Shown: positions 19,501-64,000 of the stretch, one piece after another
How the letters are laid out: every line of letters starts with the position of its first letter
Numbering within the stretch: the stretch's first letter is position 1
Origin: Lenzites betulinus
Lineage: Eukaryota > Basidiomycota > Agaricomycetes > Polyporales > Polyporaceae
NCBI GenBank assembly: GCA_022264855.1
Contig: JABYQU010000006.1
Location: 496,001 to 560,000, forward strand
DNA: 64,000 bases
Direction: 5' to 3'
Made by a program: the position numbers and the translations under genes
Notes under the pieces: generated by a model
Told to the model about the DNA's origin: nothing
Databases searched by the model: none
Seen by the model: the letters and a program-made list of their open reading frames with translations, nothing else

Positions 19501-22500
19501 CTTGCCGTCGTCTTCGGAATGGTTGTGTGCGGCCTGACGTCGCTCTTCGCGGAGCCTGGCAGTCTCCGTCTTGAGTTTCTCGCCCTCTTTCGTGTGCTCG
19601 GCCAGGACGTCATGGAGGTCGGAGACCAGTTTCTGGGCGTCGGTTTCCGCTGTGAGGAGGATATCGAGAGATTCGCGATATCGGTTCAACTTCGTATCGT
19701 CTCGCTGCAGGAGCTGTGCCAGGCTCGCCATTGTCGACACCTGGGCAAGTTATGAGACTCCTTGATCGTACGTAATTCCGACAAGCCTGTACGCACCTTG
19801 CTCTTCCTATCGTCCATGTAGTTCTTCCAATTCTGCTCCCGCATACTCTACGACGAGGCTCAACATCACTTCGGACAAAATGGTACAATATATCGAACGT
19901 ACTTCAAGCACTTCCGCCATACTCTTCAGCACGCCGGGTTTGTGCAACTTGTCCGCTCCGCCATGGGCCATAAGCTGACCGACTTGTGGATGCGTGCAAA
20001 TTCCGCGAAGCCTCCGGAGCCAGTGCCGCAACTTCGCGACATCAACTTCCCGGTTCTCGGTCGCAGCAACTCCGCGCGCATCCAGTCCAAGATCGAGGAG
20101 AGCCGCGTCAAGGGTTTGGTCATAGACCTGTCACCAATTAATGTCATCAGTTTGCGAAAGAATAGGCAAATATAAGAAGTACTGACATGCTGTTCCACAC
20201 GACCAAGTTCGATCGGTACGAGGTATCGCGTTTGCAGAGGGATCGTGAGCTCGTCTTTGACGGCCGTCTTCATCGTCCTGTCATCACCATGTTCAGAAGT
20301 GCTGTGAACATCGTGACTCATAACATGTACCTAACGGCATAGCGGCGGAACAGCTCAACGAATTCGTGCACATAGCCTGGAAGGAGAAGGCGCGTCCAAG
20401 CTCTCGGATAGTCTGTGACAGCCTTTACTCGGAGGAACCTGCTTCTCGTGAGCGAAGACAACGTCATAAGACGTCAAAACACTTACTTGAGTACATGAAT
20501 TAAATCGCTCACTTGCGAGCGCGCAGGCGTCCCCGAAACCGCGAATGACGACTTACGGGGAATAAGCGAGACCATCTCCCTAGGTGACCGCAGCAGCACA
20601 TGGCTCGTCAGACACCTGTGCTCCGCAACACAACATATCGCGTAGGGCTACGCACTCCGTCTTCCCGCCTCCCACCATCTGCACCTCGTCCATGATAACG
20701 CGGTACCATTCACATTGGACAAGCGGGCTGCGCGCGCGAGCCGTGTGCCCATAGTCCACAAATGCACGCCTCGGACGACTGGGTGGGGGGCGCGCAACGC
20801 CCAGGTCATGTTGCAAGACCGCGTATGTGGTGATGCACACGTCGAATGTGTTCACGTATGTGCACCAATCCTGCACCTCGAGGTCCTCGTCATCATCAAC
20901 TGGCATTTCTTCGTCATCCATAGCGTCCGAAGGAGCCGCTCCCTTGCCCTTAGAGCCACGTTTGGCCTTCGATACGCGAGCCTTGCCCTTGGCCTTCCGC
21001 TTCAGGAGCTTCTCGCGTGCTGCTTCTATGTCCTGCTCGGTAACAGGTACTGGAACTTTCTGCCATCCATCGTAGATGAGAACCTTAAGGCCAGGGGCGT
21101 GAGCAGCGAGCTCGTCCGCCCATTGCGGAGCCAACGACGGCGGTGTCACAATGAGCGTGGTCTGGTAGTTTGGAGGCGACGTCAATGTCTAGAATTCAGG
21201 AAGACGAATCGAGCTCACTCTGATCTCCTTGACGTCAATCTTAGTCTCTGAGTCCCAACGCGTGTTCGCTGGGGAACGGTCCAAAGCGGGGTTCAATATG
21301 ATAGTGGAGATACATTCGAGCGTCTTTCCGAGGCCAGGTTCCTCCGCGACGATACCACCGAGCGCATCCTCATTCAGCTCGTCATCTTCTGCCGTTGGCC
21401 GTGTCGCGGAGACGACACCACGTATCCGGTTGACATACCATGTTTCTTCGGCGGAAACAGATACGGCCTCCCAGAACAAAGGCAAGGGACGTCCATCGCT
21501 GTCGCCGTCAGACTGCAGGACTATCTCGCCGGAGGCGGTAACAGTCTTTCCCTCCCGTCCAAGCATCCAAGAGATACTACGCCTCTGGAACGGGAGCAGA
21601 GTAGGCAGCAGCGCGTCCGGTTGTAGAGTGTCCAAGGCTTGTGAGGACAGCAAAGGCGGTGCAGGACCAAGGACAGAAAACAGTAGAGGAATATTTGTGG
21701 TGCCTCCGTAGGTGCCCGGTAGGGTAGTTTGAGGGGGGAACACGTGCAAGAACACCCTGCGTTGTGCTTCCTGGACCGCCGAAGCTCTTGTCTGGTCCAC
21801 GTGAGCTCTCGTAGAAGGTATCACCGGTTCAAATATTCTTGGGCAAACAAGGGAGCAATCCACCTGCACGCGAAGAGTGAACGGAAGCGCGCCCTCTTGC
21901 ACGGACCTGTCTCCAGCTAGAAGCACCACTGAAAGCTCGGCTCTCAGGCGAGCACGGCCATCCCTTGCGAGGAGGAGAAACGCGTTCAGAGGGTCACGGA
22001 TGGCATACCCTCGAGTGTGAAAGTCGTGATCGCCGGTGTCGAAGGGGTAGTGCGAATTGGTGGGCAGAGGGAAGAGGACTCGGGACTCGTCTCTAGGATC
22101 AAGCACATCGCCTGCGTCGTTGATCGTAGAAGTGCCCAACGGGATTACGGAGTCTGCAGGGTCGTACGAAGAAAGATATGCACATAGCTCTTGCTCGTGC
22201 TTTGCCCAGCCACGTTTCTCAGCAGTTTCATCGTCCAGGTAGCAGCCCGAGGCATCAGGAATATACGCAGTCGTGAACCGCACATTCAATACTCGGCGGT
22301 ACACGGGAAGAAGCTTCTCCCGGTCGTCTTCGGTGCCAGAGATACATACGTTCTGCGAGACTTTGATGCGTTTGCGCGGAGCATTGTCGAGGTATTCCTC
22401 GAGCGTGCGCTTCTTGCCCTTGACCTCCGCCTTCTCATAGGTTGTATTTCTGGTATCTCGGGTACGCAGAAGGTCAAGAAATCGCGGCACCCGAAGCCGT

Positions 22501-22853
22501 AATATGTCTTCGTCCGAAGTGGAGAACGGCGATGGTGCATAGCGGAGACTTTGCGTGTGGGCGGAGTCTTCGGTAAGCATCTCGCCCCAGTCCGACTAGA
22601 GGAAGTCGGAGGAGGTGAACGGAGGCGGCAGCCCCGCGTGTAGCAGGTGATGGTAACAGCTGAAGGCGCGTCCCGCGGCCGCGTTGCACGACGCGCTGTG
22701 CCGCTGATCACGTGCGACTTTCACACTTCGCGCGCCCCGAGCAGTACTTGGTAGTTTCTCGACATCCTCGTAAGCGGTACCGTCTAGCGTACATGACAGC
22801 CACCGGACAGTAGGTGAGATCGTGAGACATAATTTGCGTGTATGATGATACAT
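16530..22853 (-). CDS. SHPRH/Rad5-type SNF2 ATPase with RING finger
   Basis: Many exons, including 22580-21219, 21188-20656, 20579-20487, 20438-20331, 20277-20187 and 20127-19903, then further exons to the stop at 16530. Domain order is SNF2 N-lobe with LLPTLLPFQRRSISWML, a Walker A variant EEPGLGKTLE, and DExx-type box MDEVQMV (the DEAQ-like form of SHPRH). Next come SLIPRKSSFAVSGTPAR and a long charged helical insert. A RING finger follows (CILCKCDF...CPVCR), then the helicase C-lobe with IVFSAWAD, GLNVTCASRVFLVE and a spliced IARIDRMGQT-type motif. SHPRH and Rad5 are E3 ligases that polyubiquitinate PCNA for template switching at stalled forks. The RING inserted between the lobes identifies the SHPRH/Rad5 group. 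Start is uncertain: codons 22853-22599 read as a plausible N-terminus but are separated from the main frame by an in-frame TAG at 22598-22596. The safe start is ATG 22580. Confidence 0.88.
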
Positions 22854-43349: not shown

Positions 43350-44931
43350 TCAGACCATGTCTGCCGAATTTGGGCGGACGGACGCAGGTACGTCCGGGAC
43401 CGACTCGCGGCGTGTGGGCGACTCGGGGTCGTACACGCGCTTCGGCGCCGGGGGGAAGCTGACGGGGGGAAGCGTGTCGAGGGGGGAGATGCCCTTCTCG
43501 CTGACGGGCGAGCCGAGGAACGTGCTCGAGCCGTTCGAGCTCGCGCCCGACGAGCTCTCGATGGGCGAGTACGCCGCCTTCTCGTCCGCGATGGCGTCGC
43601 TGATGGAGATGTTCGTCGAGAGGCGGTCGGAGAAGCTGTCCATCGAGCGGCGGCGCGCGGCGGTGTGGCGCTGGACGAAGGTCGGGATCGTGACGCGCCC
43701 GAAGGACGAGCCGACGGACTTCATGCCAGAGGACGTGAAGCCAGTGCTGCGGTCGAACGTCGTGAGGCCGACCTTCTTAGCGACGGACGAGAGTGCGAGG
43801 CGGTAGTGCTTGCGCGCCTCCTCTGCGAGCCCGAAGAAGAGGAAGAAGAGGATTGCGCAGCCGATGACCGTCCAGCGCTTGAAGTTGACCGCTGCGACCG
43901 TGCCCGGGTCTTGGCGCCAGGAGACCGCGCTTTCCTGGTCGACGCGGGAGAACCAGTAGTGGAGGTTGGCGAATCCTGTCCATGGGTACATGGGCGTCTT
44001 GGAATACATAACCAGATTGTACGTTCCGAGCGGGACGGTGAGGCACACTTCGACCGCAGCGAGGCCCATCAAGCGGAAGTACCGGTGGAAGGTGAGGTTC
44101 GCGTTCGAGGCAACGAGCGCGCTGAAGTCACGGCGACGACGGAAGAACGAGCGAAGAGTGAGAACTGGGAACCGGGTGAGCTGAGCCGTTGCATGGGCAT
44201 AGGGTGTAAGGTGTACATACCACAGTACGTTCCTGATATAAGACCGATAGGAATGGGCCAGACGACGTAGAGGAAGTACGCGAGATAGGTGTTCGGGTAC
44301 TCTTCCATGCAGCCAACACCCTCGAGGATGTCGAAACGATGCCCCTGGTAGAAGAAGTCTGGAAACGAGGTCAAGATCGCGCAGAGGACGGCAGCCGCGC
44401 GAAGGCACTTACAGAGGACCATCGAAAGAACGGGAATGCCCATCCCGATGGCAAGATCGATGATCATGTTGCGGCGCTTGTCCGACTGGGTCATCGACAC
44501 CGAGGAGATGCTCGCAATGTGGTACAGACGGCGGTTGATGACGAGAGATGCGCAGCAAACCGCGATGCTCGTGCCGATGCTAAAGTGAGTTGCTGAGCGC
44601 GTCGTGCGTGGGTCAGCTACTCGCGGGGTCGCGCAGGGAGCAGAAGTACTCACTGATGTCGCACCAGACGGGGGCCCAGTTAATGGCGTTATCACGCCAG
44701 ACGACGGTGTTGATGAACTGGAAGAGGCACTGGGTGCCGATCCAGAAAATGTACAAAACACAGCCGACGTTCCATGCTGCGCGAAATCCCTTAGAACTCG
44801 TGCCGCTACCTGTTCCAAGTAGCGCGGTACGTACCTTCCAAATGCCAGTAGAGGGGAACGCAAACCAGAATGAATCCGAGCAGCGAGAACGCCGCAATGA
44901 TGTCGACCTGAACCGGCCAAGGGACAGACAT
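43350..44931 (-). CDS. STE3-type pheromone receptor (receptor 1)
   Basis: Five exons close in frame, each join in phase 1: 44931-44835, 44776-44654, 44592-44413, 44358-44221 and 44164-43350, giving 450 residues. Seven hydrophobic helices are seen. Family motifs are in order: VPLYWHLEAWNVGC (end of helix 1), NTVVWRDNAINWAPVWCDI (first extracellular loop), NRRLYHIAS, QGHRFDILEGVGC, HRYFRLM, YPWTGFANLHYWFSRVD, and the helix 7 block FFLFFGLAEEARKHYR. The C-terminal tail of about 140 residues is Ser-rich and has DESSGASS-like acidic/Ser stretches, probable phosphorylation sites. The protein couples a farnesylated peptide signal to a G protein. It lies 7 kb from the other receptors with two unrelated genes between, so it may be a non-mating-type-specific STE3 paralogue, a class common near agaricomycete B loci. 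Confidence 0.95.
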
Positions 44932-51999: not shown

Positions 52000-53873
52000 T
52001 CAGTCTGTTTCCTTCACCACGGTCATATAGATCCCTCCGGAAAGACCCCCGTCGGAGCCATTACGTCTCGCGCGCGAGCTCGCGCTCAGGCTTCTGGGAA
52101 TCTGGAGCAGGTCCCTGCTGCGGACCTTCCGGATGTGCTGAGGAACCGCAAGCCCGGGGCCCGCGGAGCCGGTCGCGCTGTCTTGGAATGGCGCGGGGCC
52201 GTATGCCTCGTCGTACACAAGCGAGCCGATGCTGATCATCGAGGATGCAAAACTCCCCGTGAAAGATGAGACACTTTCAGGACGCGAAGACGAGGAGGAC
52301 GCTACAGGAGCGGACTCGGGTTCGGGGATGGGAGACGGAGGGGAAACAGTGATGGGAGTATTCGGAGAAGGCGTGCGCGGAGACGTTGGGATGGTGGAGG
52401 GCGGCAGGGGCCACGGACCGGTGAGGAGCGAGCTGGGGCGAGGCGCCGCGATCTTGTGTCCTCCTTCTTTCGGAGGACTCGGGGTGCGTACAGGAGCGAT
52501 AGGCGGGGATACGCTTCCGCTCCGTTGCCCGGGCTGGTAGATGACAGGGAGGGGGGCCAGCGGGAGACCCAGAGCCGAACGCCCCGTAGGCGACTCGATA
52601 TACGTGAGAGTCGACCGCACGAAGGGGTCCTCCTGATCGGACACCGCGAGAGTCGATTGAGAGGCCGCGTCGGGGATGGCAAGCGGCGCGAGCTTGACCT
52701 TCGCAGGAGCTGCCGGACGCCACGTGTCGTCCCAGCCCGACTTCATCTCGTGCATCGATACAGGCGAGGAAAGGGTGCTGTAGAGTGTCTGTCCACTGAG
52801 GCCTTTCGTCTGCGCGAAGGCGTCGTTCGCAGACTCCCGAAAAACCTTCCGACGGAACCAGCTGGGCAGCGCGCCGTAGACTGTAGAGTGCTCGTCGTGA
52901 AGTCCGGAGAAGAATACCAGGCCTGTCATGGAGACAAAGATGAGGGTACACGCCGGGATTACCCACCACTCCACCTCGATTCTCTTGAGGTCAAGGCGAG
53001 AAGATGCGGGGATGATGAAGACCTGTGACATCTGAGCGTGCACGTCGTTCCAGCTCTCTACGGTCCATGCCTGAAGGCCCCCGACGGAGACGATATGGGC
53101 TGCCATGGAATAGAGGGTGACGGAGAAGGAGACCAAGCCGATGAAGACTGAAATGGCGAGGGGTCGGATAAAAGCCAGAGGGCTGACTCGGGGGGCGTCC
53201 TGCATGTGGCTGAAAAAGAAGAGGCCGCTATCCAGGCGGGCGTGGACCGCTAGAACGGCGGCGATGAAAGTAATGATGCAAATGACAAGTGGCGGGATCC
53301 ACATGAAGATAATCGAGAGCGAGGATGTGTGTATGGAGGCGGTGCAACCAAAGTTCGTGGCGACGTCGAAGCGATGAGGCTGCACTATTATGTCTATCGC
53401 CACAACATATTAGCGTCTCTTCACTCAGACGGCAGCAAGTACTCACGAAGGATTATATAGACTATCGGGAGGACCAGGCATAGCATAACGTCCGTCGTAA
53501 GTGTTGGCGCTTTGCGTATCGTCTCTCGCCCAAGGGCGCACCGGCGCAATTTCAGGACCAACGCAAGCGCAGATCCTGGAAGTGCAAGCTGGGCAGCGAG
53601 AAGCACTCTCGTCACTTCCCATTAGACTGTCAGCATCGACAGGCGATGTGGATAAGCTTGAAATCAAACACTACCTATATCACACCATGCAGGGATATGA
53701 ACGGCATCGTTTCCTGCCCATACCAGGGTGTTGACGCCGTGGATGATATTGCAGCAGATCAGCCAAGCCGCCAGCGACGCGACGGGGATATTTCGTGAGG
53801 ACACGAAAACGGGCGCCACAAGCACCAGCGCGGCGACGCCGAGGAACGAAATCGCAGGAAGCTCAGCTCGCAT
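52000..53873 (-). CDS. STE3-type pheromone receptor (receptor 2), divergent
   Basis: Three exons close in frame: 53873-53675, 53614-53447 and 53393-52000, giving 586 residues. Helix 1-2 has ICCNIIHGVNTLVWAGNDA followed by IPAWCDIVTRVLLAAQ, the STE3 first-loop block. After helix 3 the usual QGHRFD motif is replaced by VQPHRFDVATNFGC. Helices 4-7 follow in one exon with FIRPLAISVFIGLVSFSVTL, the loop WNDVHAQMSQVFIIPASS and WWVIPACTLIFVSMTGLVFF. The helix 7 end lacks the FFGFxxEA block of the other receptors. The cytoplasmic tail is very long (about 290 residues), Pro/Ser-rich, with SPPIAPVRTPSPP, TIPTSPRTPSPNTP and SSSSSRPESVSS. It has two introns against four or more in the neighbours. It is a STE3 family member by overall layout, but its ligand class may differ. 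Confidence 0.9.
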
Positions 53874-56832
53874 CTCCTAGTGGACAGACTGAGGCCGCCA
53901 ACAGATAAACCAAGGTAGCGCGTGAGGATCGCGAGCGTGAGCGGGGGAGAGGGAGGAGGAGTAAACGTGGAAGGACTCGAGAGGTTTGGGTATATTCGGG
54001 AGCAGCGAAGAAAGGTACTGTTTGAGCATGGCACGGAGACTGTTGTCAATTTGACCGAGGAGAGGAACGAGGAGCGCCTACTGAGTAGCGAGAGCGTGGT
54101 GTAAAAACAAGGATGCACATCTCGAGCACAAGATGAATGCAGCGGGGTGTCCTCGAGCGCCGGGCGAGGCGCAGAGACAGAGCTTCTAGTCCGTTGCAGT
54201 CTGGTGTCGTGACGCCGAGTGCGGGTCCAGTCGGAGGGAAAACATAAGTGAACGTCCAAAAGAGGACGTGCCTTTGCTGGTGCCAAGAAAGGCAGTTAGT
54301 ATGCCAGAGTCAAAAGCGGAAGAGTCTGTAGAACAAGGCATCATTGTGAGAACATATGGCCTATGAGACAACCCGACGTATTCGGTCTCAAAGACACGCC
54401 CGAGTCATACAGCTCCAGGGCAAGACACCGTCAGTGAATGACATCATCTGATGAGCGACAACTAGCGATCATAAGGGCTCGCAGTAGATAGTCGCACGCG
54501 TATTTGCATGACTTCGTAGTGCCCATTACACTATTACATGTGTAAGATAGTATCTTGACAGAGGGGCAACGTGTGAGCTTACTATGTCTTTGTAATTGTA
54601 ACATCACTCTGAATCACATACTGCCTTTTGTGTCTGGCCAATGCCGCAACTACCGAAAAAATCTTGTGTTGCGATTTTGAATGATGCCACACTCACTGAT
54701 TGCATTAACGTGCAAACAGCAGGGGACGACGTGGCAGTAGGAGATGAGAAGCGTGGGAACCGTTGTGCGCCACAAGGCTACTGAACGCACACCGCGCGCG
54801 CCTATTACTAGTCTGGACCCCAAAGTGCCGTCAACTCCGATGATTATTCATCACTACTTGAAGTAGCATCCGAAGCTTGCGTTCGACGCATTGCGACATG
54901 GTAAACCCAGCCTGACATGTGTCAGACATGCCCCTGTGCAATTTGAGATAGGAGTCTAGGACGTCAACACGTCTAAGTTTCCATTGATATTGATGCGCAG
55001 TAACGATTTACTGCAGGTTGTAACCGTGGTATACGCAGTACTGTACTAGGAATCATCGACATCCACGGGCCTATGCACAACTTGATACAGATTTAAATAT
55101 TAAAAGCTCGAGCTTGACTTCTTGCGGCCTTGGCATACCCTGCGCGACTTCCTGCTATCTCGGAGAAGCGCTGAAGGTTACTAAGGAGTCTTTTACTCAC
55201 GTCATCTACGACCGATCTTCGATTTTCCTTTGTGAGCGGCGTTTGTCAGTACTAGTCTGTACTAGTGCATGCAGTCAGAGCACTTGGCGTTCTGCTGCTT
55301 TCCGCTATTTTCGGGGTGACTAGCAGCGTCGATCACGATCGATCGGGTCAGAAGAAGTTGCGACTGCAGTGACGTCATCAGCGAAGATGTGGACGTCCAA
55401 TGGATCGAAATACTTCGAGTGTGGTTAACTATCGTAGCTTGTGCTTGTCACGGTATAGTAGTACTACTCTTGTACGTACTGCGATGTGGCTCGGATGTAA
55501 CAGAGCTCTGGACTGATATAATCAGTGATTTGTCCTTCCGGTCCCAGCACTTTGGAAGAATACGGCGCCAGGCCAGTCGCGCTTACCTGCCGTGGCTTGG
55601 ATCAAGCACTAAATGTACAGTCCCAGGAATATCCCAGATCTGAGCTGGTCTTTCTAAAGGGCAAAGGGCGTTGGAGAGCGCGATTGTCCACCGCATCGAT
55701 CATAATGGAAGCTTTCAATAAGCAGTGCACTGCATCTCGATAAACCATTCGGCCCATTGTCATCCTGCCGCCTTGGTTCAACGCGGGAGCGCCCATTGTT
55801 CGCGCCATGGCGATGATATGTCAGGCTGCCGCGAGGCAGCCCAAACAGCCGCAAAGCAGAACTGGATAAATTCGGCCAACTGCCGTCTCACCTGCTCGTC
55901 TCCTACTACCATGATCCGTGTGGCCGGGCGTGCCCCTTGAACCTGAGGGGCGGACTGGACTTGGGATTGTCGCAGCTGTGGAGCTTTGGGAGCTCGCCAT
56001 GGGCGGCGACTTGACCATGGTTGTGTTGTGCTCGGATCTCGTCCGCTCCGACTCTCTTACTCCTTGCGATCGCTGTGGCCTCCATGACTATACCGGATCC
56101 ACTGCTGCTTCATACTGAAACCTCAATGCTTGTGCACGGATGAATTCGTCCGCCGTAGTCGGAATGAGCCTCCGTCGTGTCGCCATTGCTGCGCACGAGT
56201 GTGGTTAGCCGCGCCCAGCGACGACTAGTATGGAGCCACTCACCGCGATGCAACCCAACCCCCTGAGAGGCAAGATGTGAAGACGTTGACGACTGGGGTG
56301 AACGGAACGATCGCACGAAACAATCTATACCAGCAAATGTAACAACAGCGAACACTTGCAAGTCGAAGCAGACTATCACACATTGCACGACACCATGACG
56401 AGAAAAGGAACGTGTATTGCGGGGGTACAGTCCGCGAGCGCAAGGCCAATAATAATAATACAACGGGAACACATAATCGAAGGGAAAGAAGCAAACTACA
56501 GAAGGAGCGTGAGGGTGGGGCAAATAATCTACGGGCACGAAGCCAGTACTGGTGCCCAGCACCGCGCGATAGCTGAGGCAGGAAGACCAGGTTAGACAAC
56601 ATCACACTGCGCTATCGGCCACTCAAACTCACCGAATAATATAACAATAAGAATAGAAATCCGAGGACAATCCATGAAGCGAACGAAGAGGGAAGGGATA
56701 CGAGAGGCAGCAGCTGTGACTTAACGATCGCAACGGCTTAGCCCAAGTCCCATCAAGTCAGAGGAAATTAGGTACGTACCATTTCAACAGCAATGAAGCT
56801 GGGCTACCATCAGCTACGGCCGGCTGCAACCG
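53874..56832. other. 3-kb intergenic region inside the mating-type cluster
   Basis: No supportable gene. The first 400 bases on the minus strand are probably the leader of receptor 2 (CT-rich). The middle (54400-55900) is AT-rich with many short frames and no CAAX-ending precursor on either strand. Such gene-poor, rapidly changing spacers are usual in B loci and may hold remnants of lost genes, but none can be named. Confidence 0.5.
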
Positions 56833-56985
56833 CTACGCGATGACGCAGTAGAAGTGGCCGGACGCAGTAGGTGTGTGCTCAAATTCGACGGGGACGTCGG
56901 AGAGCGGACATGTGAGCGCGGGCTCTTCGGATACGGTGATAGTGCTGTCGCCGAAGAGGTCGTCGAGAACATCGAAAGTATCCAT
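56833..56985 (-). CDS. pheromone precursor 1 (CAAX, CVIA)
   Basis: A single uninterrupted 50-residue frame begins MDTFDVLDDLFGDS and ends with Phe-Tyr-Cys-Val-Ile-Ala and TAG. CVIA is a CAAX box for farnesylation, proteolysis of the last three residues and carboxymethylation. A Glu-His pair at residues 36-37 is a usual processing site in basidiomycete precursors. Cleavage there would release a 10-residue peptide (residues 38-47) with C-terminal farnesyl-Cys. Family length is 40-80 residues. The small size, MD-F start and position beside receptors support the call. The matching receptor on a compatible mate cannot be named from sequence. Confidence 0.9.
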   Translation of the reverse strand: MDTFDVLDDLFGDSTITVSEEPALTCPLSDVPVEFEHTPTASGHFYCVIA

Positions 56986-57827
56986 GATGGAGAAAGATAG
57001 CGGTGGGGGTAGTGTGTTGAGTGCGAGGTGGATGGTAGAGCGGGGCGCTGTGAGCGAGAACTCGAGTGGATGTGCGAGGTGATAGAGCTTGGAGGGCGTA
57101 TCGGTTGGAGGTGCAGTATAAGCTTGTGGGGCTTATACATAAAATGGGGGGTGATTGGGGCGTCAAATTCAGACAATGAGAGACGTCTGTCGGTCGATGA
57201 GGACAATTGCTCTCCAAGTTTCGGCCGAGATTTGCGATGCTTTGAGGTACAAGGGAAGCGGTTCGTTGCATCAGGAGACATGGATCCAGGCTCGGCGACG
57301 ACACTCACCAGGTGCTCGGAAACCAATGCAAGTGCTTGGGATGCAAATAGAGGCTTCACGCAGGAGCTTGAGAGGAGGAGCAGTGGTCGATTGTTGCACG
57401 AAAGCGGGAGGTTATGAATACGGATTACCAAATTTGTATATATTTGGCTTCCAGCTCGTACACAAACACCCCACTCTAAGGTCCGGTTAACCTCGTGATA
57501 CTTTTATGTTCAAGCTCCGCAACACTTTTGATAGGGAAGGCCTTGGGCCACATCAATAGCGACCTTTCGGAGTTTGATCATTGTGTGTGGCCATGTTTGG
57601 AGACCTGTTACGCGCGCGCCGTTCCATTGTCCATTGTTTGCTCAAGCGGTCTCTCGCCTATTACGGCACCGTGCCTAAGCATGTAGTGCTGCTATAAATC
57701 GTGGACGGATCCCTGATAACGATAACTCATTTGCCCCTACTTCTCTTCGTCGCAATCGCGCACCCTAACCAACACATCGACTTCAACGTCTAAACGTTCA
57801 CCACAACTCACTCACTCCTTGTTCGCC
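56986..57827. other. divergent spacer between pheromone precursor 1 and 2
   Basis: 842 bases between two divergently transcribed precursor genes, carrying both promoters. A pyrimidine-rich leader with cacaactcactcactcc precedes the start at 57828. No other gene is seen. Confidence 0.5.
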
Positions 57828-58013
57828 ATGCTGGACGAATTCATCACACTCTCCCTCTCAATCATACATCCCGGGCAGCCTAGCTCGCCTGAGGAAGGGG
57901 ATGACCCATTTGCCTCTCCCCCGGTCACTCCCAGCGACTGCGAATTCCCCATCGACCACGAGCACGCCTCAACGTCACCATCGTCGCCCGCCTTCTTTTG
58001 CATCATCGCTTGA
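57828..58013 (+). CDS. pheromone precursor 2 (CAAX, CIIA)
   Basis: A single frame of 61 residues begins MLDEFITLSLSIIHPG, has an acidic middle SPEEGDDPFAS and ends Phe-Phe-Cys-Ile-Ile-Ala followed by TGA. CIIA is a farnesylation CAAX box. Glu-His at residues 45-46 is the probable processing site and gives a 12-residue mature peptide (residues 47-58) rich in Ser and Pro. It starts at the ATG at 57828. A slightly longer upstream frame lacks an ATG in good context. Confidence 0.92.
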   Translation: MLDEFITLSLSIIHPGQPSSPEEGDDPFASPPVTPSDCEFPIDHEHASTSPSSPAFFCIIA

Positions 58014-58777
58014 GCGTTGCCCGCAGGCTCGCCCCCGTCCTCATCCCCGCTATCATGCTATCGTCTTGCTTTGCTTGTCTAGTGAGTGTACTACAGTGCT
58101 TATTGTAGTGACGTCGCTTACGCTTTCTTCCGCAGTGTTTATTGATATCTATTCGCATGCGCAATTGCCATGCTTCCGGGTATTGCAGGACGTGTAGAGT
58201 TGCGGAGTTAGGACGCACCTCTCGTGTATCCAGCAGGGATCACGTAGTACGGTTTTGGGGTCGGGTTGGGCGTTGTATATCGTGCTGTGTTGTAATCATA
58301 GGCATCTTACCAACGGATTCTTTTCCCATTGATCCTTCTGAACTGCTTGAGGTTGTTACTGGCGTGCCTGGTTTTGGTAATGGGCACAAACAGTACTTAG
58401 TCTGTGCGCGCGACGCGTATATACTTTGTATGCCTGTCTTATGCGAGAGATGTGCGTCGAACGCGAGCACGACGTCTAAGGCCTGAGGTTTGCGTGCAGC
58501 GCTGTGGCCAGAATCTCGGTCAGTGTATCATGATACCCTCCTATAGAGATTGCGGCACGCATTAACTAACGAGCCTGGCAACCACTGCACCAGGGAGCGA
58601 ATCACGGAATGACTTAACACGGAGCTACATTTTACATGCCATAGTGTGCAGGCTTTCAATCGTGGTACCGGTGACAGCCTCATCTTCGAGAACAGCGGGT
58701 CGTGAAGTATCATGTTACAGAGTAGGGTAGCGGCTATCGATACAGGGGTTTGTGGTATATATAGCGAGGAGGAAATC
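58014..58777. other. spacer between precursor 2 and receptor 3 (convergent)
   Basis: 764 bases, 3' flanks of two convergent genes. Short frames show no domain or CAAX end. Confidence 0.5.
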
Positions 58778-60529
58778 TTAGACGGATCGATGAGGGAATG
58801 AAAATGGGGTGGGAGGCTCCGAAGTCTCCTCCACTTGCAGCGAAATGAACGATGGTACGCGCGCACCATATGCCGCTTCGATGTCCGTGAAAGACAGCGA
58901 CTGCGCCGACTGCTCGGAGTCATGGCTGAAGGTGGAATCGGTAGGCGAGGGACCCGCGGCGATTATAGACGATAGCGGCGAGAGCGGTGACATGGGTGGC
59001 GAGAAATGGGGAAGCTCGGGAACGACGTCTTCCGGGCAGTCGACAATGTCTCGACGAATGAAGCGGTCGTGAATGGGCGTCGTGGACTCCGATGGGAGTG
59101 TAGTCGCGGAGGGGAGGCCTCGGTACGTCGCCAAATCCTTTTCGTCGTGAAAAGACGATACGGAGGAGCACAAGGAGTGAGATCTATTTATATGCGCAGC
59201 TGTATGCAAGCCGTAAGGAGGAAGAGGATCGACGTTGGACGAGGTTTTCGTAGGGGAGGACATGTTGCTACAACATAGAGCGTCAACTAATATCCACGGG
59301 CTGCAGAGTAGGGGTAAACATACCCAAGTGACTGCATGCCGCTCTTCTCATCGGCACGCGCGTTGCTAACACCGAGCTTGACCCGGAGGAAGCGGAAACC
59401 CTTGGAATAGTTGCGCCGCGCTTCACTAGCGACGCCGAAGTAGATAAAGAAGATGATAGCGCATGCAGGAGACAGCCATTGGTTGAGTTCGCGAACCACG
59501 ACGGACGTTGGATTCGCTCGCCAGTTCACGGCAGCGATCTGTTCGATGCGCCCGAAGTCGAAGTGGGTATCGGACCAGCTGATCCACGGGCCGAGGGGTT
59601 GAGTGGTAGCGTTCACATAGATAGCGTAGCTCGAGACTGGAATCATGAGCAGGAGGGAGGTGGTAGAAAGGGCCATTAACCGGAAGTAACGTCCCAACGT
59701 CAGCGAGGAGGTCTTGGAAGCCAAGTATTCGTTGAACTGCACGCGGCGCCTATTGAACTCAAGTAAGGATAGAACTATAATGCGATTTAGTTCGACACGT
59801 TCGGAGACAGTGCAAAGATCACTCAGCAACGCACCGCAATATATAGAAGCAATCAACCCAAGCACGAGGGGCCACCAGTCCACCAGGAAATAAGTCAACA
59901 AAGTGTTGTAGAGCGCTGGAAAACAGCCCAGTTCTTGCAGGATGTTGTAACGGTGTCCTTGTACGACGTATGCTGCACATACAGTTTCAGCCGAGTAGTC
60001 ATTACGGCAGTGGAAGTATCACTTACATAGAGCCGCAATCAAGAGTGGAAACAGGACGCAGATCAGTGAGTCTATGATCACGGCGCGGCGTTTCTATCAT
60101 CTTTCATGAGAATCGCATATCGAGGTTGGTTATACCCGTCAACGTACCTCGGACCTCGTCACCATCACTGCCTGTGCTCGTGATATCCTAAACAATCGCT
60201 GGTTGATGCGCATAGCTGCAGCAGGAATGCCCACAGACGCAGCGATTGTGATACGGGTGGCTACGTTATTATCAGCATGTGAATGACGTTCTGTGACAAT
60301 GAGCAAGCTCTGACTCACAGATGTCGCACCAGATAGGTGCGTGGTCGATTGCGTCCCGTGCCCAGACCACGGTATTCACGAAACCATTCAAACATGAGAG
60401 CGCTGTCCAAATCATATAATAGCATGTGGCGGAGTTCCAAGCTTCAAGGTGCCACGGAAGAGGGACGAGGGCGAGAACAAACCCGAGGAAGGCAAAGACA
60501 GGAAAGAGAGGGTAAGTAGGATCTACCAT
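58778..60529 (-). CDS. STE3-type pheromone receptor (receptor 3)
   Basis: Six exons close in frame: 60529-60319, 60260-60148, 60093-60027, 59972-59835, 59774-59324 and 59267-58778, giving 489 residues. Motifs in order are VPLPWHLEAWNSATC, NTVVWARDAIDHAPIWCDI, NQRLFRIS, YVVQGHRYNILQELGC, GRYFRLMAL, LGPWISWSDTHFDFGRIEQ and the helix 7 block IIFFIYFGVASEARRNY. The last exon encodes a 160-residue tail with TPIHDRFIRRDIVDCPEDV and many Ser/Pro. The intron between SE and KRR (60147-60094) is absent from receptors 1 and 4. With precursor genes on both sides it is the best candidate for a mating-type-specific receptor. It would bind a partner strain's farnesylated peptide and signal through a G protein to nuclear migration and clamp formation. 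Confidence 0.96.
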
Positions 60530-61300
60530 GACGGCTTGAGGAGAGCGAACGATGTGCAGGAGGGCTAACAGGAGAGATGCAGACCAGACTGAGAGCATCC
60601 ATCTTTGCTATATCGCAAGTAGCCTCTGCGTGGGCTTGTTTGTGCAACGAAAGCGGATTGACCCTCGAGCACACAGGACAATGAACAATGAGAACATGCG
60701 AGCCGCCTCGCGCGGCGCGGGCGCGGGTCCTCCAGCGCCTATTTGATCTGCCCAAACAACCACACATATCAGACACATAGCGGATCAATTCAGGGGGGAT
60801 TTATCGTCAGCTCCGGCCCCACTCCGAATTGATTCCCCCATGGGATCTGAGAGCCTTGTAATCATAAACCAGCTTGCGAGCTTCGGAGAATTTGGGGATC
60901 GGCGTGGTCTCTCCTCTCATCATCGCGCAAAGTTGTTACAAACATAGTGATATACCCTAGACCAGCCGGTTTGCTAGGCGGCGGCTAGCAACGACGGCGG
61001 TCCGTGCGACGGTCGGATATTTTACCGATATCGATATTTCGCGGAGTTGAGCATCTTGGCATTATCCGCCGTTTTGGGCTAACAAAACAAGTTCCTGATC
61101 TCCATTGTCCTGGCCACCTCAGTAGTACTAAGCCTGCCTGTCTCTGTGCATTACAGGATCTTACAGACAATAGTCGCGGTTCCTCCTTATATCGCCGGGA
61201 TAAGATCGCTCAGTCTCATCTCCACTGCCCAGCCCTCGCCTATCGCAACAACCAGCCCATCCTCACAATCGTCGCACCCACTACATTCTTCCTCTTCTCA
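60530..61300. other. divergent spacer between receptor 3 and pheromone precursor 3
   Basis: 771 bases carrying both promoters. Nothing coding is supportable. The immediate 5' flank of precursor 3 is CT-rich. Confidence 0.5.
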
Positions 61301-61477
61301 ATGGACGAATTCTCCATCATCATCGTCACCATAGGGGACACCTCCATCGACACCCCTTCGCATCCTTTCCCCTCTTCGCCGAATTTCTCTGCGCACGCAG
61401 CCCTCGTGCAGTCCACGTCAGTTCCCGTGAACGAGGACCAGATGAACGGGTACAACAGCTATTGCATCATTGCATGA
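61301..61477 (+). CDS. pheromone precursor 3 (CAAX, CIIA)
   Basis: A single frame of 58 residues begins MDEFSIIIVTIGDTSID and ends Tyr-Asn-Ser-Tyr-Cys-Ile-Ile-Ala with TGA. CIIA is a farnesylation CAAX box. An Asn-Glu-Asp at residues 44-46 sits where the family processing pair is expected. Cleavage after it would give a 9-residue peptide (residues 47-55, starting Gln-Met-Asn-Gly). The N-terminus shares MDEF with precursor 2 (MLDEF). The gene lies between receptor 3 (divergent) and receptor 4 (tandem). Confidence 0.92.
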   Translation: MDEFSIIIVTIGDTSIDTPSHPFPSSPNFSAHAALVQSTSVPVNEDQMNGYNSYCIIA

Positions 61478-62404
61478 TCTAATGGCACACTTCTCGCGCA
61501 TCTTGTTATCGGTCAGTAAGGGTACATGCGGTTCAAAGTTGTAGATGCTCATTAGATTCTAGTCTGGCGACAAGTTGCTACGGCGTCACGCCTTCGATTC
61601 CTCGGCGAAACGTCCAACCTGAGATCACCCCACGCGAGCCATCGTCGCGTTCGTCTCCCTCCCTCCTTCGGAATACCTCCCCACTATTCGTTCCCCACTT
61701 ATTCCGCCATGTCTCCCCTCCATGTCGTCATCAATTTCTCAACTATCACAGGTCGGATCCGCGTGTAGTGTAGTATTTATCAGTCATTATTGTAGCTACT
61801 GAACCCGAGATCGATCACATCTGTTGTCGTTGTTAACGTTTCCGTGTAATATGAGTATCTATCGACGCTAAGGGCGCGTCATGAATTTGGCTTTCAGACT
61901 GCTAGCTGTTTAATGTTATATGTTCCTTTTGAGCAAGAACTTAATCGGCTGTATGGTAAACTTCGGCATGCACAAGGATGGCTATAGCTTAAACAGTTGA
62001 AAGCGCCAGCTTGCGCGCTAACTTCGAATTCCGCCAGCGTTCCTTGCTGAGTCTACGTATGACCAGCGTATGAATTACCTGCAGGTTGAGACTCGGATGC
62101 GTTGTTAAACGTAGAGACGAGAAGAGATAGGACCCGCGGTTTTATCTTACATCAACCGGGGTGATGAGAAGTCAAGCACGTTCCGACGGTCACGCGTTCA
62201 CGGCGCACGAATAAATTGTTCCCGACGTGAGGCCGTTGAGTCTTGTATCAAGGCAAGCATAGAAATAGTTTTCAAGTCGTGGTTCAACGCTCAGCGCTTA
62301 GCGCTGGTGTGTTTGCCTGCATCAGGAAAGCCTCCGTGAACCATGGGCCTCATATGGTAAGGCATGGCTGGATGGAGGCGCTGGAGACACCCCCCATCAT
62401 ATGG

Positions 62405-62425
62405 AGACAGGGCGTCTCCATCAGT
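62405..62425. repeat. 8-bp perfect inverted repeat, 5-nt loop
   Basis: Arms atggagac and gtctccat separated by agggc. Together with a longer imperfect hairpin at 62599-62647 it forms a small cluster of related palindromic words in the spacer before receptor 4. Confidence 0.7.
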
Positions 62426-62598
62426 GCCAAAATGAAGACTATGGAGCCTGTCCCACGGCTTGCCCGCGCAACTCACCAACGCCGTGTCGTTTGTTCACCG
62501 TTTAAAAATAGTGGTCAGGCTCCAGAAGAGCAGAACTTCATGTTCACAGACGAAAACAAGCAAATTTCGAAGGTTCGTCAACGGGATGGAGAACATGT

Positions 62599-62647
62599 CT
62601 CCAGATGGAGGCCCACGGAGCGCTGGAGGCACGTGTCTCCATCTGGA
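62599..62647. repeat. imperfect hairpin with ccagatggag/ctccatctgg arms
   Basis: The left arm contains ccagatggag and the right arm ctccatctgg, exact complements over ten bases, separated by about 25 bases. It reuses the same word as the inverted repeat about 190 bases upstream, so the two may derive from one small element. Confidence 0.65.
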
Positions 62648-63024
62648 CGATTTGGTGTTTCCTGATGTGGGACCCTCGCGTTGCGTTGTTTAAATGCATC
62701 CAACTTCTAAGCTTCAAATGTGAAACATGTCTTCTAAGTTTTGAAGCGCAACGAGTTGAATTACAGCTTTGAAGCGAGAATCTAGTAGTTGTGGACAATG
62801 GGCATTGTCGACGCAATTGTCGGACAAATATGGAAGTGTATTACCATATATGGGCACATCACGTTACCAGGGTGTCTTTTGTTCTGCCTTCTAAGCGCCC
62901 AACAGAATAAGTGAACGTCAGTAACAACGATGTTTGTCTACCTGGCAGAGGCAGCCGGTCGAGCGATATATCTCATCCCAATGCCAGGTCATTTGCCTCT
63001 GCTCTCCTCGGCACCTACTACGCT

Positions 63025-64000
63025 ATGGCGTATCCTATCCTCCCCATAACGGCTTTCGTTGGCGCTTTTCTCGTCCTCATTCCTGTGCCGTCTCACTGGC
63101 GCGCTCGCAACTATGCTACGGTGTCTCTCGTCGCTTGGCTGTTCGTTCTGGACCTCATCTACGGGATAAATTCAATTGTTTGGAGCGACAATGTACGCAT
63201 ACGACTTCTCGTATGGTGCGATATCAGTGGGTTTAGTTTTCTGTGTCACTTTTGGTTTCGACCTAATCTCATTTCGCAGCAACTAAGCTCACAATCGGCG
63301 CAGGCGTGGCTCTCCCGGCCGCCGCTATGTGCATCTGTAAACATTTGGAACTAGTGGCCTCCGGGCGCGTTGTGCGCACAAGCCCAGGTGATAAGAAGCG
63401 TCGAATGTACTTCGACCTTGCCATGTGCTTCCTCTTGCCAGCCATTATAATGGCATTGCGTGAGTTTAGTCTCTACTTGCGACTGATTCTATTCTCACTC
63501 TTAGCACTGCAGACTACGTGGTCCAAGGACATCGGTTCGATATCGTAGAAGCTTTTGGCTGCCAGCCAGCCACCTACTACTCCGTCCCAGGAGTCTTCAT
63601 CGTTTGGTTCCCGCCCCTGCTTCTTGCATTCGTATCCATGATCTATGCCTGTATGTGCATCATTGGATGTCTTGCTATCCAATCACGCTAACCTTCTGAC
63701 GCTGACGAATAGCTCTGGCCCTCTATCATTTCCTTCGCCACCGTGTCACCTTCGCCGCGATCCTGCAGAACTCAAATTCATCAATCACGCCGAACCGCTA
63801 CTTACGCCTCATGGCACTCGCGATAACTGAAATCATCTGGCAGATCGTGCTCACCGTACTGCCAATGTACGACAACATCTCGTTCGGCCTCCGTCCTTGG
63901 ACTACCTGGGCGGACGTACATTCGGACTGGTTGCGCGTTGACCCTTACTATCTTGCCGAATTTGAACCCGCCTATAAGGCGCAGCTGTTTCTCTTCTTCT
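63025..64000 (+). CDS. STE3-type pheromone receptor (receptor 4), 3' partial
   Basis: Four exons visible: 63025-63226, 63280-63459, 63513-63650 and 63713 to the window end. All joins are in phase 1. Helix 1 reads MAYPILPITAFVGAFLVLIP with VPSHWRARNYATVS, then GINSIVWSDNVRIRLLVWCDI, KLTIGAGVALPAAAMCICKH, DKKRRMYFDLAMCFLLPAII, YVVQGHRFDIVEAFGC, NRYLRLMAL and LRPWTTWADVHSDWLRVDP. The gene is cut in the fourth extracellular region, so helices 6-7 and the tail are outside. Exon boundaries around the QGHRFD exon match receptors 1 and 3. Receptors 3 and 4 have one uninterrupted first exon, whereas receptor 1 has an extra intron there. It is transcribed in the same direction as precursor 3, 1.5 kb away. 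Confidence 0.94.

What the first reader, a model, noticed from the sequence alone, without database searches (positions are those of the whole stretch)
52000..64000. Compact B-type mating locus with three pheromone precursors and three STE3 receptors
Within 12 kb there are three STE3-family receptor genes, one cut by the right edge, and three small CAAX precursor genes ending CVIA, CIIA and CIIA. Precursors and receptors are interleaved in both orientations, the usual structure of a P/R locus. Several receptor-precursor sets imply subloci like the B-alpha/B-beta arrangement of Schizophyllum, or redundant subfamilies as in Coprinopsis. The locus probably continues to the right.
Basis: partly seen in the sequence, partly recalled or inferred. 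Interest (0 to 1): 0.9.

Follow-up and report, generated by a model that had tools for sequence, protein, structure and literature searches.

The report
Mushroom mating-type pheromone and receptor cluster
This stretch of a bracket fungus chromosome is most of a mating-type locus, where pheromone genes and their receptors decide which partners are compatible; it is a normal example of a known system, but larger than first read and carrying receptor versions that appear older than the genera sharing them.

Summary
In detail: the interval holds three STE3 receptor genes (R2, R3, R4) and three short CAAX precursor genes. It is an undercount. A genome-wide search finds five STE3 genes, all on this contig within about 26 kb: R1 (window 43.4-44.9 kb) was missed and R5 lies 3.7 kb right of the edge. 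Protein names point to Lenzites betulinus (Polyporales). More precursors follow. S19-family (RSM19-like) and PAK-kinase genes lie to the right and an SNF2 gene to the left, as around Trichaptum MATB. The likely homeodomain locus is on another contig.

Homologues separate the receptors. R4 (B-beta-like) has two sequence classes and R5 three, each shared between genera and never two on one listed contig; trees that keep Trametes/Lenzites together are rejected for both. R4 class I occurs with R5 class I on four contigs and class III on two, so they behave like separate subloci. R1 and R3 show one class each, with hidden classes not excluded; R2 has no close relative among those fetched. R4 and R5 are the best mating-type candidates, and only R4 lies in the stated interval. 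The B-locus reading stands; 'compact, three receptors' does not. A new member of a known kind.

The parts
43350..44931 (-).
   Evidence: PF02076 hits, splice model, E 9.7e-103 for its first 315 aa; 11 fetched proteins are closest to R1, 9 of them Polyporaceae rows at 64-84%
52000..53873 (-). R2, divergent STE3 receptor gene with an open spliced frame, 3 exons, 586 aa; role not resolved
   Evidence: Splice model, E 4.4e-54; the eight best-scoring of 358 fetched homologues are 30-34% identical
56833..56985 (-). Pheromone precursor 1, 50 aa, CVIA
57828..58013 (+). Pheromone precursor 2, 61 aa, CIIA
58778..60529 (-). R3, STE3 receptor gene, 6 exons, 489 aa (= P0001, named Lenzites betulinus)
   Evidence: one Polyporaceae clade of 12 rows
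61301..61477 (+). Pheromone precursor 3, 58 aa, CIIA
63025..64000 (+). R4, B-beta-like STE3 receptor gene, cut by the window edge (continues to about window coordinate 64.2 or 64.7 kb; the C-terminal exon is uncertain); best mating-type candidate in the interval
   Evidence: sequence classes
20583..22595 (-). Two frames with SNF2-domain matches, left flank marker

Best explanation
The finding is most of a B (P/R) mating-type locus of a polypore, probably Lenzites betulinus. Each precursor would be farnesylated at its CAAX cysteine, trimmed and exported as a lipopeptide. Each STE3 receptor is a seven-helix G-protein-coupled receptor that should ignore the pheromones of its own haplotype and respond to those of a different allele, starting nuclear migration and clamp-cell fusion. 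Compatibility is most likely set by two separable units: R4 (B-beta-like) with neighbouring precursors, and R5 (just right of the window) with its own. R1, R3 and perhaps R2 are linked receptor-like genes that probably do not set mating type. Shown here: gene content, open frames, clustering, partial flank synteny, and sequence classes of R4 and R5 shared across genera. Inferred from the literature: processing, signalling, self/non-self specificity, that the classes are alleles, and which precursor goes with which receptor.
For: The genome-wide PF02076 search listed 18 exon matches, all in five genes on this contig (its counts are lower bounds). Nine CAAX precursors in C65:538-600 kb against mean 0.0 in 100 shuffles; looser motif mean 0.17, maximum 1. 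S19-family gene at C65:572.7 kb, PAK kinase (PBD plus kinase domain) at 575.8-577.9 kb, SNF2 on the left: PAK, RSM19 and SNF2 also flank Trichaptum MATB (PMC8970355, passages). MIP and a homeodomain lie 1.4 kb apart on C21. R4 falls with S. commune BBR1 and C. cinerea O74284. R4 has 2 classes in 16 Polyporaceae rows, R5 3 classes in 17 rows, crossing genera; keeping Trametes/Lenzites as one clade is rejected, p-AU 9.9e-35 for R4 and 4.3e-9 for R5, while R3 keeps it (97/96) and R1 keeps it weakly (80/87). Proteins named Dichomitus squalens fall in both R4 classes, on contigs of different length.
Against: No second strain of this species was available, so polymorphism within the species is not shown. 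The classes come from capped lists (best 120 of 402, 404 and 768 hits) of proteins clustered at 90%, so absence from a list is weak evidence; even this genome's own R1 and R2 were not listed. I chose the tree rows by hand (80 of 358 homologues) and named the groups for the AU tests after seeing the first tree; the R3 group included Cubamyces menziesii, while the R5 group left out Cubamyces lactineus. R3 was not listed for 4 of the 6 contigs that list both R4 and R5. Of five in-locus precursors one passes Pfam's cut-off, three match below it and one has no match. RIC1, another Trichaptum MATB flank gene, is on a different contig, and DML1 is about 460 kb away.
Confidence: 0.88

Rival explanations
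1. All receptors here are conserved, non-mating receptor-like genes, and mating type is set by the HD locus alone (a bipolar species with a retained P/R region, as in Phanerochaete chrysosporium).
For: Receptor-like genes without mating function are reported in or near P/R regions of other mushrooms (PMC8970355, PMC5100862, PMC13108863, passages); the bipolar P. chrysosporium keeps a cluster of STE3 genes (PMC4101180, passage).
Against: R4 and R5 have alternative classes shared across genera, as expected of balanced mating alleles; PMC4101180 states that the related Pycnoporus cinnabarinus is tetrapolar (passage).
Confidence: 0.07
2. The R4 and R5 'classes' are paralogues that were lost differentially in different genera, not alleles of one locus.
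For: The class split is deep (R4 61-63%, R5 56-62% identity to the other Polyporaceae classes) and no locus sequence from the other species could be fetched here to prove the same position.
Confidence: 0.15
3. More than two receptors, including R3 and perhaps R1, are mating-type determining (three or more subloci, as in Coprinopsis).
For: R3 was not listed for T. elegans, T. meyenii, T. coccinea and D. squalens c157534, which list R4 and R5, so R3 may be present only in some haplotypes or have unseen classes; precursors flank R3 on both sides.
Against: In the rows seen R1 and R3 each form one Polyporaceae class with the Trametes/Lenzites rows together; Trichaptum has two mating and two non-mating receptors (PMC8970355).
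Confidence: 0.15

Closest known systems
MATB (P/R) locus of Trichaptum abietinum / T. fuscoviolaceum (PMC8970355, passages read)
   Same: Several STE3 genes with interspersed precursors; PAK, RSM19 and SNF2 flanks; two receptors with trans-species alleles and two that follow species
   Different: Four receptors and two precursors, MATB region of 30.3 kb there; five and at least five here; RIC1 is on another contig in this genome
B locus genes of Pycnoporus (Trametes) cinnabarinus (PMC4101180, passages read)
   Same: Mating and non-mating STE3 genes; seven 39-65 aa precursors with an MDA/DF start, three distinct and four alike, resembling the two precursor kinds here
   Different: That study worked from EST contigs and gives no locus map in the passages seen
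B locus of Grifola frondosa (PMC10607315, passages read)
   Same: Receptors and precursors in crossed order on one chromosome, HD locus on another
   Different: Six receptors, five precursors, 47.8 kb, and one sublocus claimed; here two separable units are inferred
PR-a / PR-b of Flammulina velutipes (PMC5100862, passages read)
   Same: Two subloci that can recombine, conserved receptor-like genes as well
   Different: A passage speaks of distances of up to 170 kb there; R4 and R5 start 4.7 kb apart here
B-alpha / B-beta of Schizophyllum commune
   Same: R4 groups with S. commune BBR1
   Different: The S. commune sequence named B-alpha-8 also falls with BBR1, and the 'B alpha' label for R5 rests only on the database name of T. 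pubescens P0242, so the labels do not carry over cleanly

Membership tests
Agaricomycete P/R (B) mating-type locus | Linked STE3 receptor genes | tested here: met
   Five genes in about 26 kb on C65, none listed elsewhere in the genome (lower-bound search, 11 of 11 candidates scored)
Agaricomycete P/R (B) mating-type locus | Linked precursor genes of about 40-100 aa with C-terminal CAAX | tested here: met
   Five of 41-61 aa between window coordinates 56.8 and 72.3 kb; shuffle control
Agaricomycete P/R (B) mating-type locus | Maturation motif (such as ER, ED or EH) 10-15 aa from the C-terminus | tested here: inconclusive
   My reading of the sequences: EH, EH, ED in precursors 1-3 (15, 17 and 14 residues from the end), EY and EN in the next two; motif from a PMC5100862 passage
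Agaricomycete P/R (B) mating-type locus | Highly divergent alleles between strains, or trans-species alleles | tested here: met
   Across species only, for R4 and R5; not within the species, and position of the classes not checked
Agaricomycete P/R (B) mating-type locus | Unlinked to the HD locus (tetrapolar) | tested here: inconclusive
   Likely HD/MIP on contig C21, P/R on C65; contigs are not shown to be different chromosomes
Agaricomycete P/R (B) mating-type locus | Controls B-regulated development in crosses | not testable with these tools
   Needs crosses or transformation
Two-sublocus P/R locus | Two receptor units whose alleles combine independently | tested here: met
   R4-I with R5-I on 4 and with R5-III on 2 of the 6 contigs that list both; contigs matched by equal length; across species, no crosses

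The most novel reading that the evidence does not exclude
Beside the mating-type units there is a second pheromone channel that does not set mating type: a family of similar 39-41 aa precursors (one at C65:568 kb, four near-identical ones in an inverted duplication beyond the PAK gene, one each on C16 and C98) serves the linked receptors R1 and/or R3 as a self-signal. Coding sequences within this family stay alike while their flanks share nothing, as if kept uniform by gene conversion.
Probability: 0.12. Interest if true: 0.65.

Novelty: new member of a known kind. Interest (0 to 1): 0.38.

Why it matters
It gives a map of a P/R locus in a Trametes relative for which I found no description in the papers searched (under the name Lenzites only), and names R4 and R5 as the genes to type. 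If the classes are alleles, receptor alleles shared by Trametes, Lenzites, Ganoderma, Lentinus and Dichomitus predate those genera, and the independent pairing of R4 and R5 classes can be tested by sequencing a few monokaryons.

Tried and rejected
A CAAX-like ORF at C65:572749 (CTIS) overlaps the S19-family match at 572692-572802 and was dropped. The other 13 of 16 hits of the first CAAX scan were dropped on inspection, for their end motif or because they lie over receptor exons. Genome-wide the pattern for C[VI]IA plus TAA/TGA gave 16 matches (control, pattern read backwards: 6), 7 on C65 between 553,999 and 596,959; of the 9 others 2 (C16, C98) end a precursor-like frame. The pattern misses precursor 1 (TAG stop) and the CTIA one. 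The Homeobox_KN hit on C84 was first taken as the HD locus; MIP is on C21 beside a homeodomain match, one of 10 such matches in the genome, so C21 is the better site. My codon-score ORF filter found almost nothing but the receptors, so 30 long ORFs were scanned with Pfam instead. No solved structure matches R4 by sequence at E 0.1. No structure prediction was made. R2 relatives were sought by a search of their own only within the mixed alignment A1; the best 120 of 768 hits listed held none close.

Full report
What is there. The window is C65:496001-560000 of a 37.4-Mb, 108-contig genome. R3 matches protein P0001, named as Lenzites betulinus, at 100%, from a contig of the same length as C65 (1,134,843 bases). 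R5 matches P0241, also named Lenzites betulinus, and R4 matches P0121, unnamed, both from a contig of that length. The taxonomy puts this species in Polyporaceae. I treat the species name as very likely, not proven.

Receptors. A whole-genome search with Pfam STE3 listed 18 exon matches, all on C65, forming five genes (counts are lower bounds): R1 43.35-44.93 kb minus, R2 52.00-53.87 kb minus, R3 58.78-60.53 kb minus, R4 from 63.03 kb plus, and R5 at window coordinates 67.70-69.42 kb plus, beyond the edge. All five protein models map exactly onto the DNA with GT-AG introns and match STE3 at E 4.4e-54 or better. R2 is the outlier: its frame is open, but its eight best-scoring relatives among 358 fetched are 30-34% identical and it sits on a branch of 3.6 changes per column. 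The C-terminal exon of R4 is uncertain: the database protein stops at 334 aa, my own model runs to 64,660.

Precursors. The three reported ORFs are real and far above chance. Two more follow to the right, C65:562464 (CTIA, 60 aa) and 568142 (CVIA, 41 aa). Of these five, Pfam Pheromone is above its cut-off for the CTIA one only; three match weakly and the 41-aa one not at all.

Boundaries. To the right come an S19-family gene, which I read as RSM19, and a PAK-type kinase with PBD and kinase domains; to the left is an SNF2 gene. PAK, RSM19, DML1, RIC1 and SNF2 flank MATB in Trichaptum (PMC8970355, passages). Here DML1 is on the same contig but about 460 kb away and RIC1 on another contig, so the synteny is partial. 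MIP and a homeodomain match are 1.4 kb apart on C21.

Which receptors could set mating type. Three protein searches listed the best 120 of 402, 404 and 768 hits, 358 distinct proteins. I put 80 of them, chosen by hand, with R1-R5 into one tree. In Polyporaceae, R4 relatives form class I (10 rows: Lenzites, T. elegans, T. meyenii, T. coccinea, L. brumalis, Fomes, C. trogii, two Ganoderma, a D. squalens contig) and class II (6 rows: T. cubensis, T. sanguinea, T. cingulata, L. tigrinus, D. squalens LYAD-421, G. leucocontextum). R5 relatives form class I (7 rows), II (6) and III (4), again mixing genera. Holding the Trametes/Lenzites rows together is rejected for R4 (7 rows of 19, p-AU 9.9e-35) and R5 (8 of 20, p-AU 4.3e-9). 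For R1 (6 of 11, support 80/87, not starred) and R3 (5 of 20, 97/96) they are together in the best tree. The groups were named after the first tree was seen; the R3 group includes Cubamyces menziesii, the R5 group leaves out Cubamyces lactineus. Against this reading: R3 was not listed for 4 of the 6 contigs that list both R4 and R5, and R1 for 5 of 6, this genome's own R1 among them, so hidden classes of R1 or R3 are not excluded, and absence from a list is weak evidence in general.

Subloci. Six contigs list both R4 and R5: four pair class I with class I (Lenzites, T. elegans, T. meyenii, D. squalens c157534), two pair R4-I with R5-III (T. coccinea, L. brumalis). Ganoderma adspersum has R4-I and R5-III on contigs of different length and is not counted. 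Contigs are matched by equal length in the listings, an inference. This fits two units that recombine, as reported for Flammulina PR-a and PR-b (PMC5100862, passages).

A second kind of precursor. Beyond the PAK gene, an inverted duplication (C65:582805-584430 with 598154-596523, 96%; 585539-586020 with 595164-594683, 93%) carries four 39-aa MDAFF..CIIA precursors. Relatives are at C65:568142, C16:108953 and C98:759349, and a weak one at C98:861547 without a CAAX end (ending read). Copies not paired by the duplication share 95-96% of the ORF but only 49-51% of 400 bases on either side, against 47-49% in five comparisons of shuffled sequence. P. cinnabarinus likewise has four alike precursors resembling presumed non-mating-type ones (PMC4101180, passages).

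Conclusion. A P/R mating-type locus, ordinary in kind, wider than described, with R4 and R5 as the mating-type candidates. What is new is the map and the cross-genus pattern, the latter of a kind already shown between two Trichaptum species.

Noticed in passing
C65:582805-598154 (window coordinates 86805-102154, right of the window; L021, L022): Inverted duplication with four near-identical 39-aa precursor ORFs; unpaired copies share the ORF from ATG to just past the stop but nothing clear in the flanks.
   Followed up: partly
G000 C16:108953-109069 and C98:759349-759468: Pheromone-like precursors of the same family on other contigs, where one search listed no STE3 gene.
   Followed up: partly
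window 52000-53873: R2 is a strongly diverged STE3 gene with an open frame and a long serine/proline-rich tail; no close relative listed.
   Followed up: partly
homologues P0060, P0085, P0087, P0090, P0100, P0109: A further receptor group related to R3 occurs in other Polyporaceae, on a contig of the same length as that of R3 in Earliella and Daedaleopsis; none of the five receptors found in this genome belongs to it.
   Followed up: partly
G000 C21:471376-474390: MIP peptidase beside a homeodomain match, the likely HD (A) mating-type locus.
   Followed up: no
C65:470639-473225 (left of the window): A 99.9% identical inverted repeat of 856 bases with a weaker outer pair of arms, perhaps a mobile element.
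   Followed up: no
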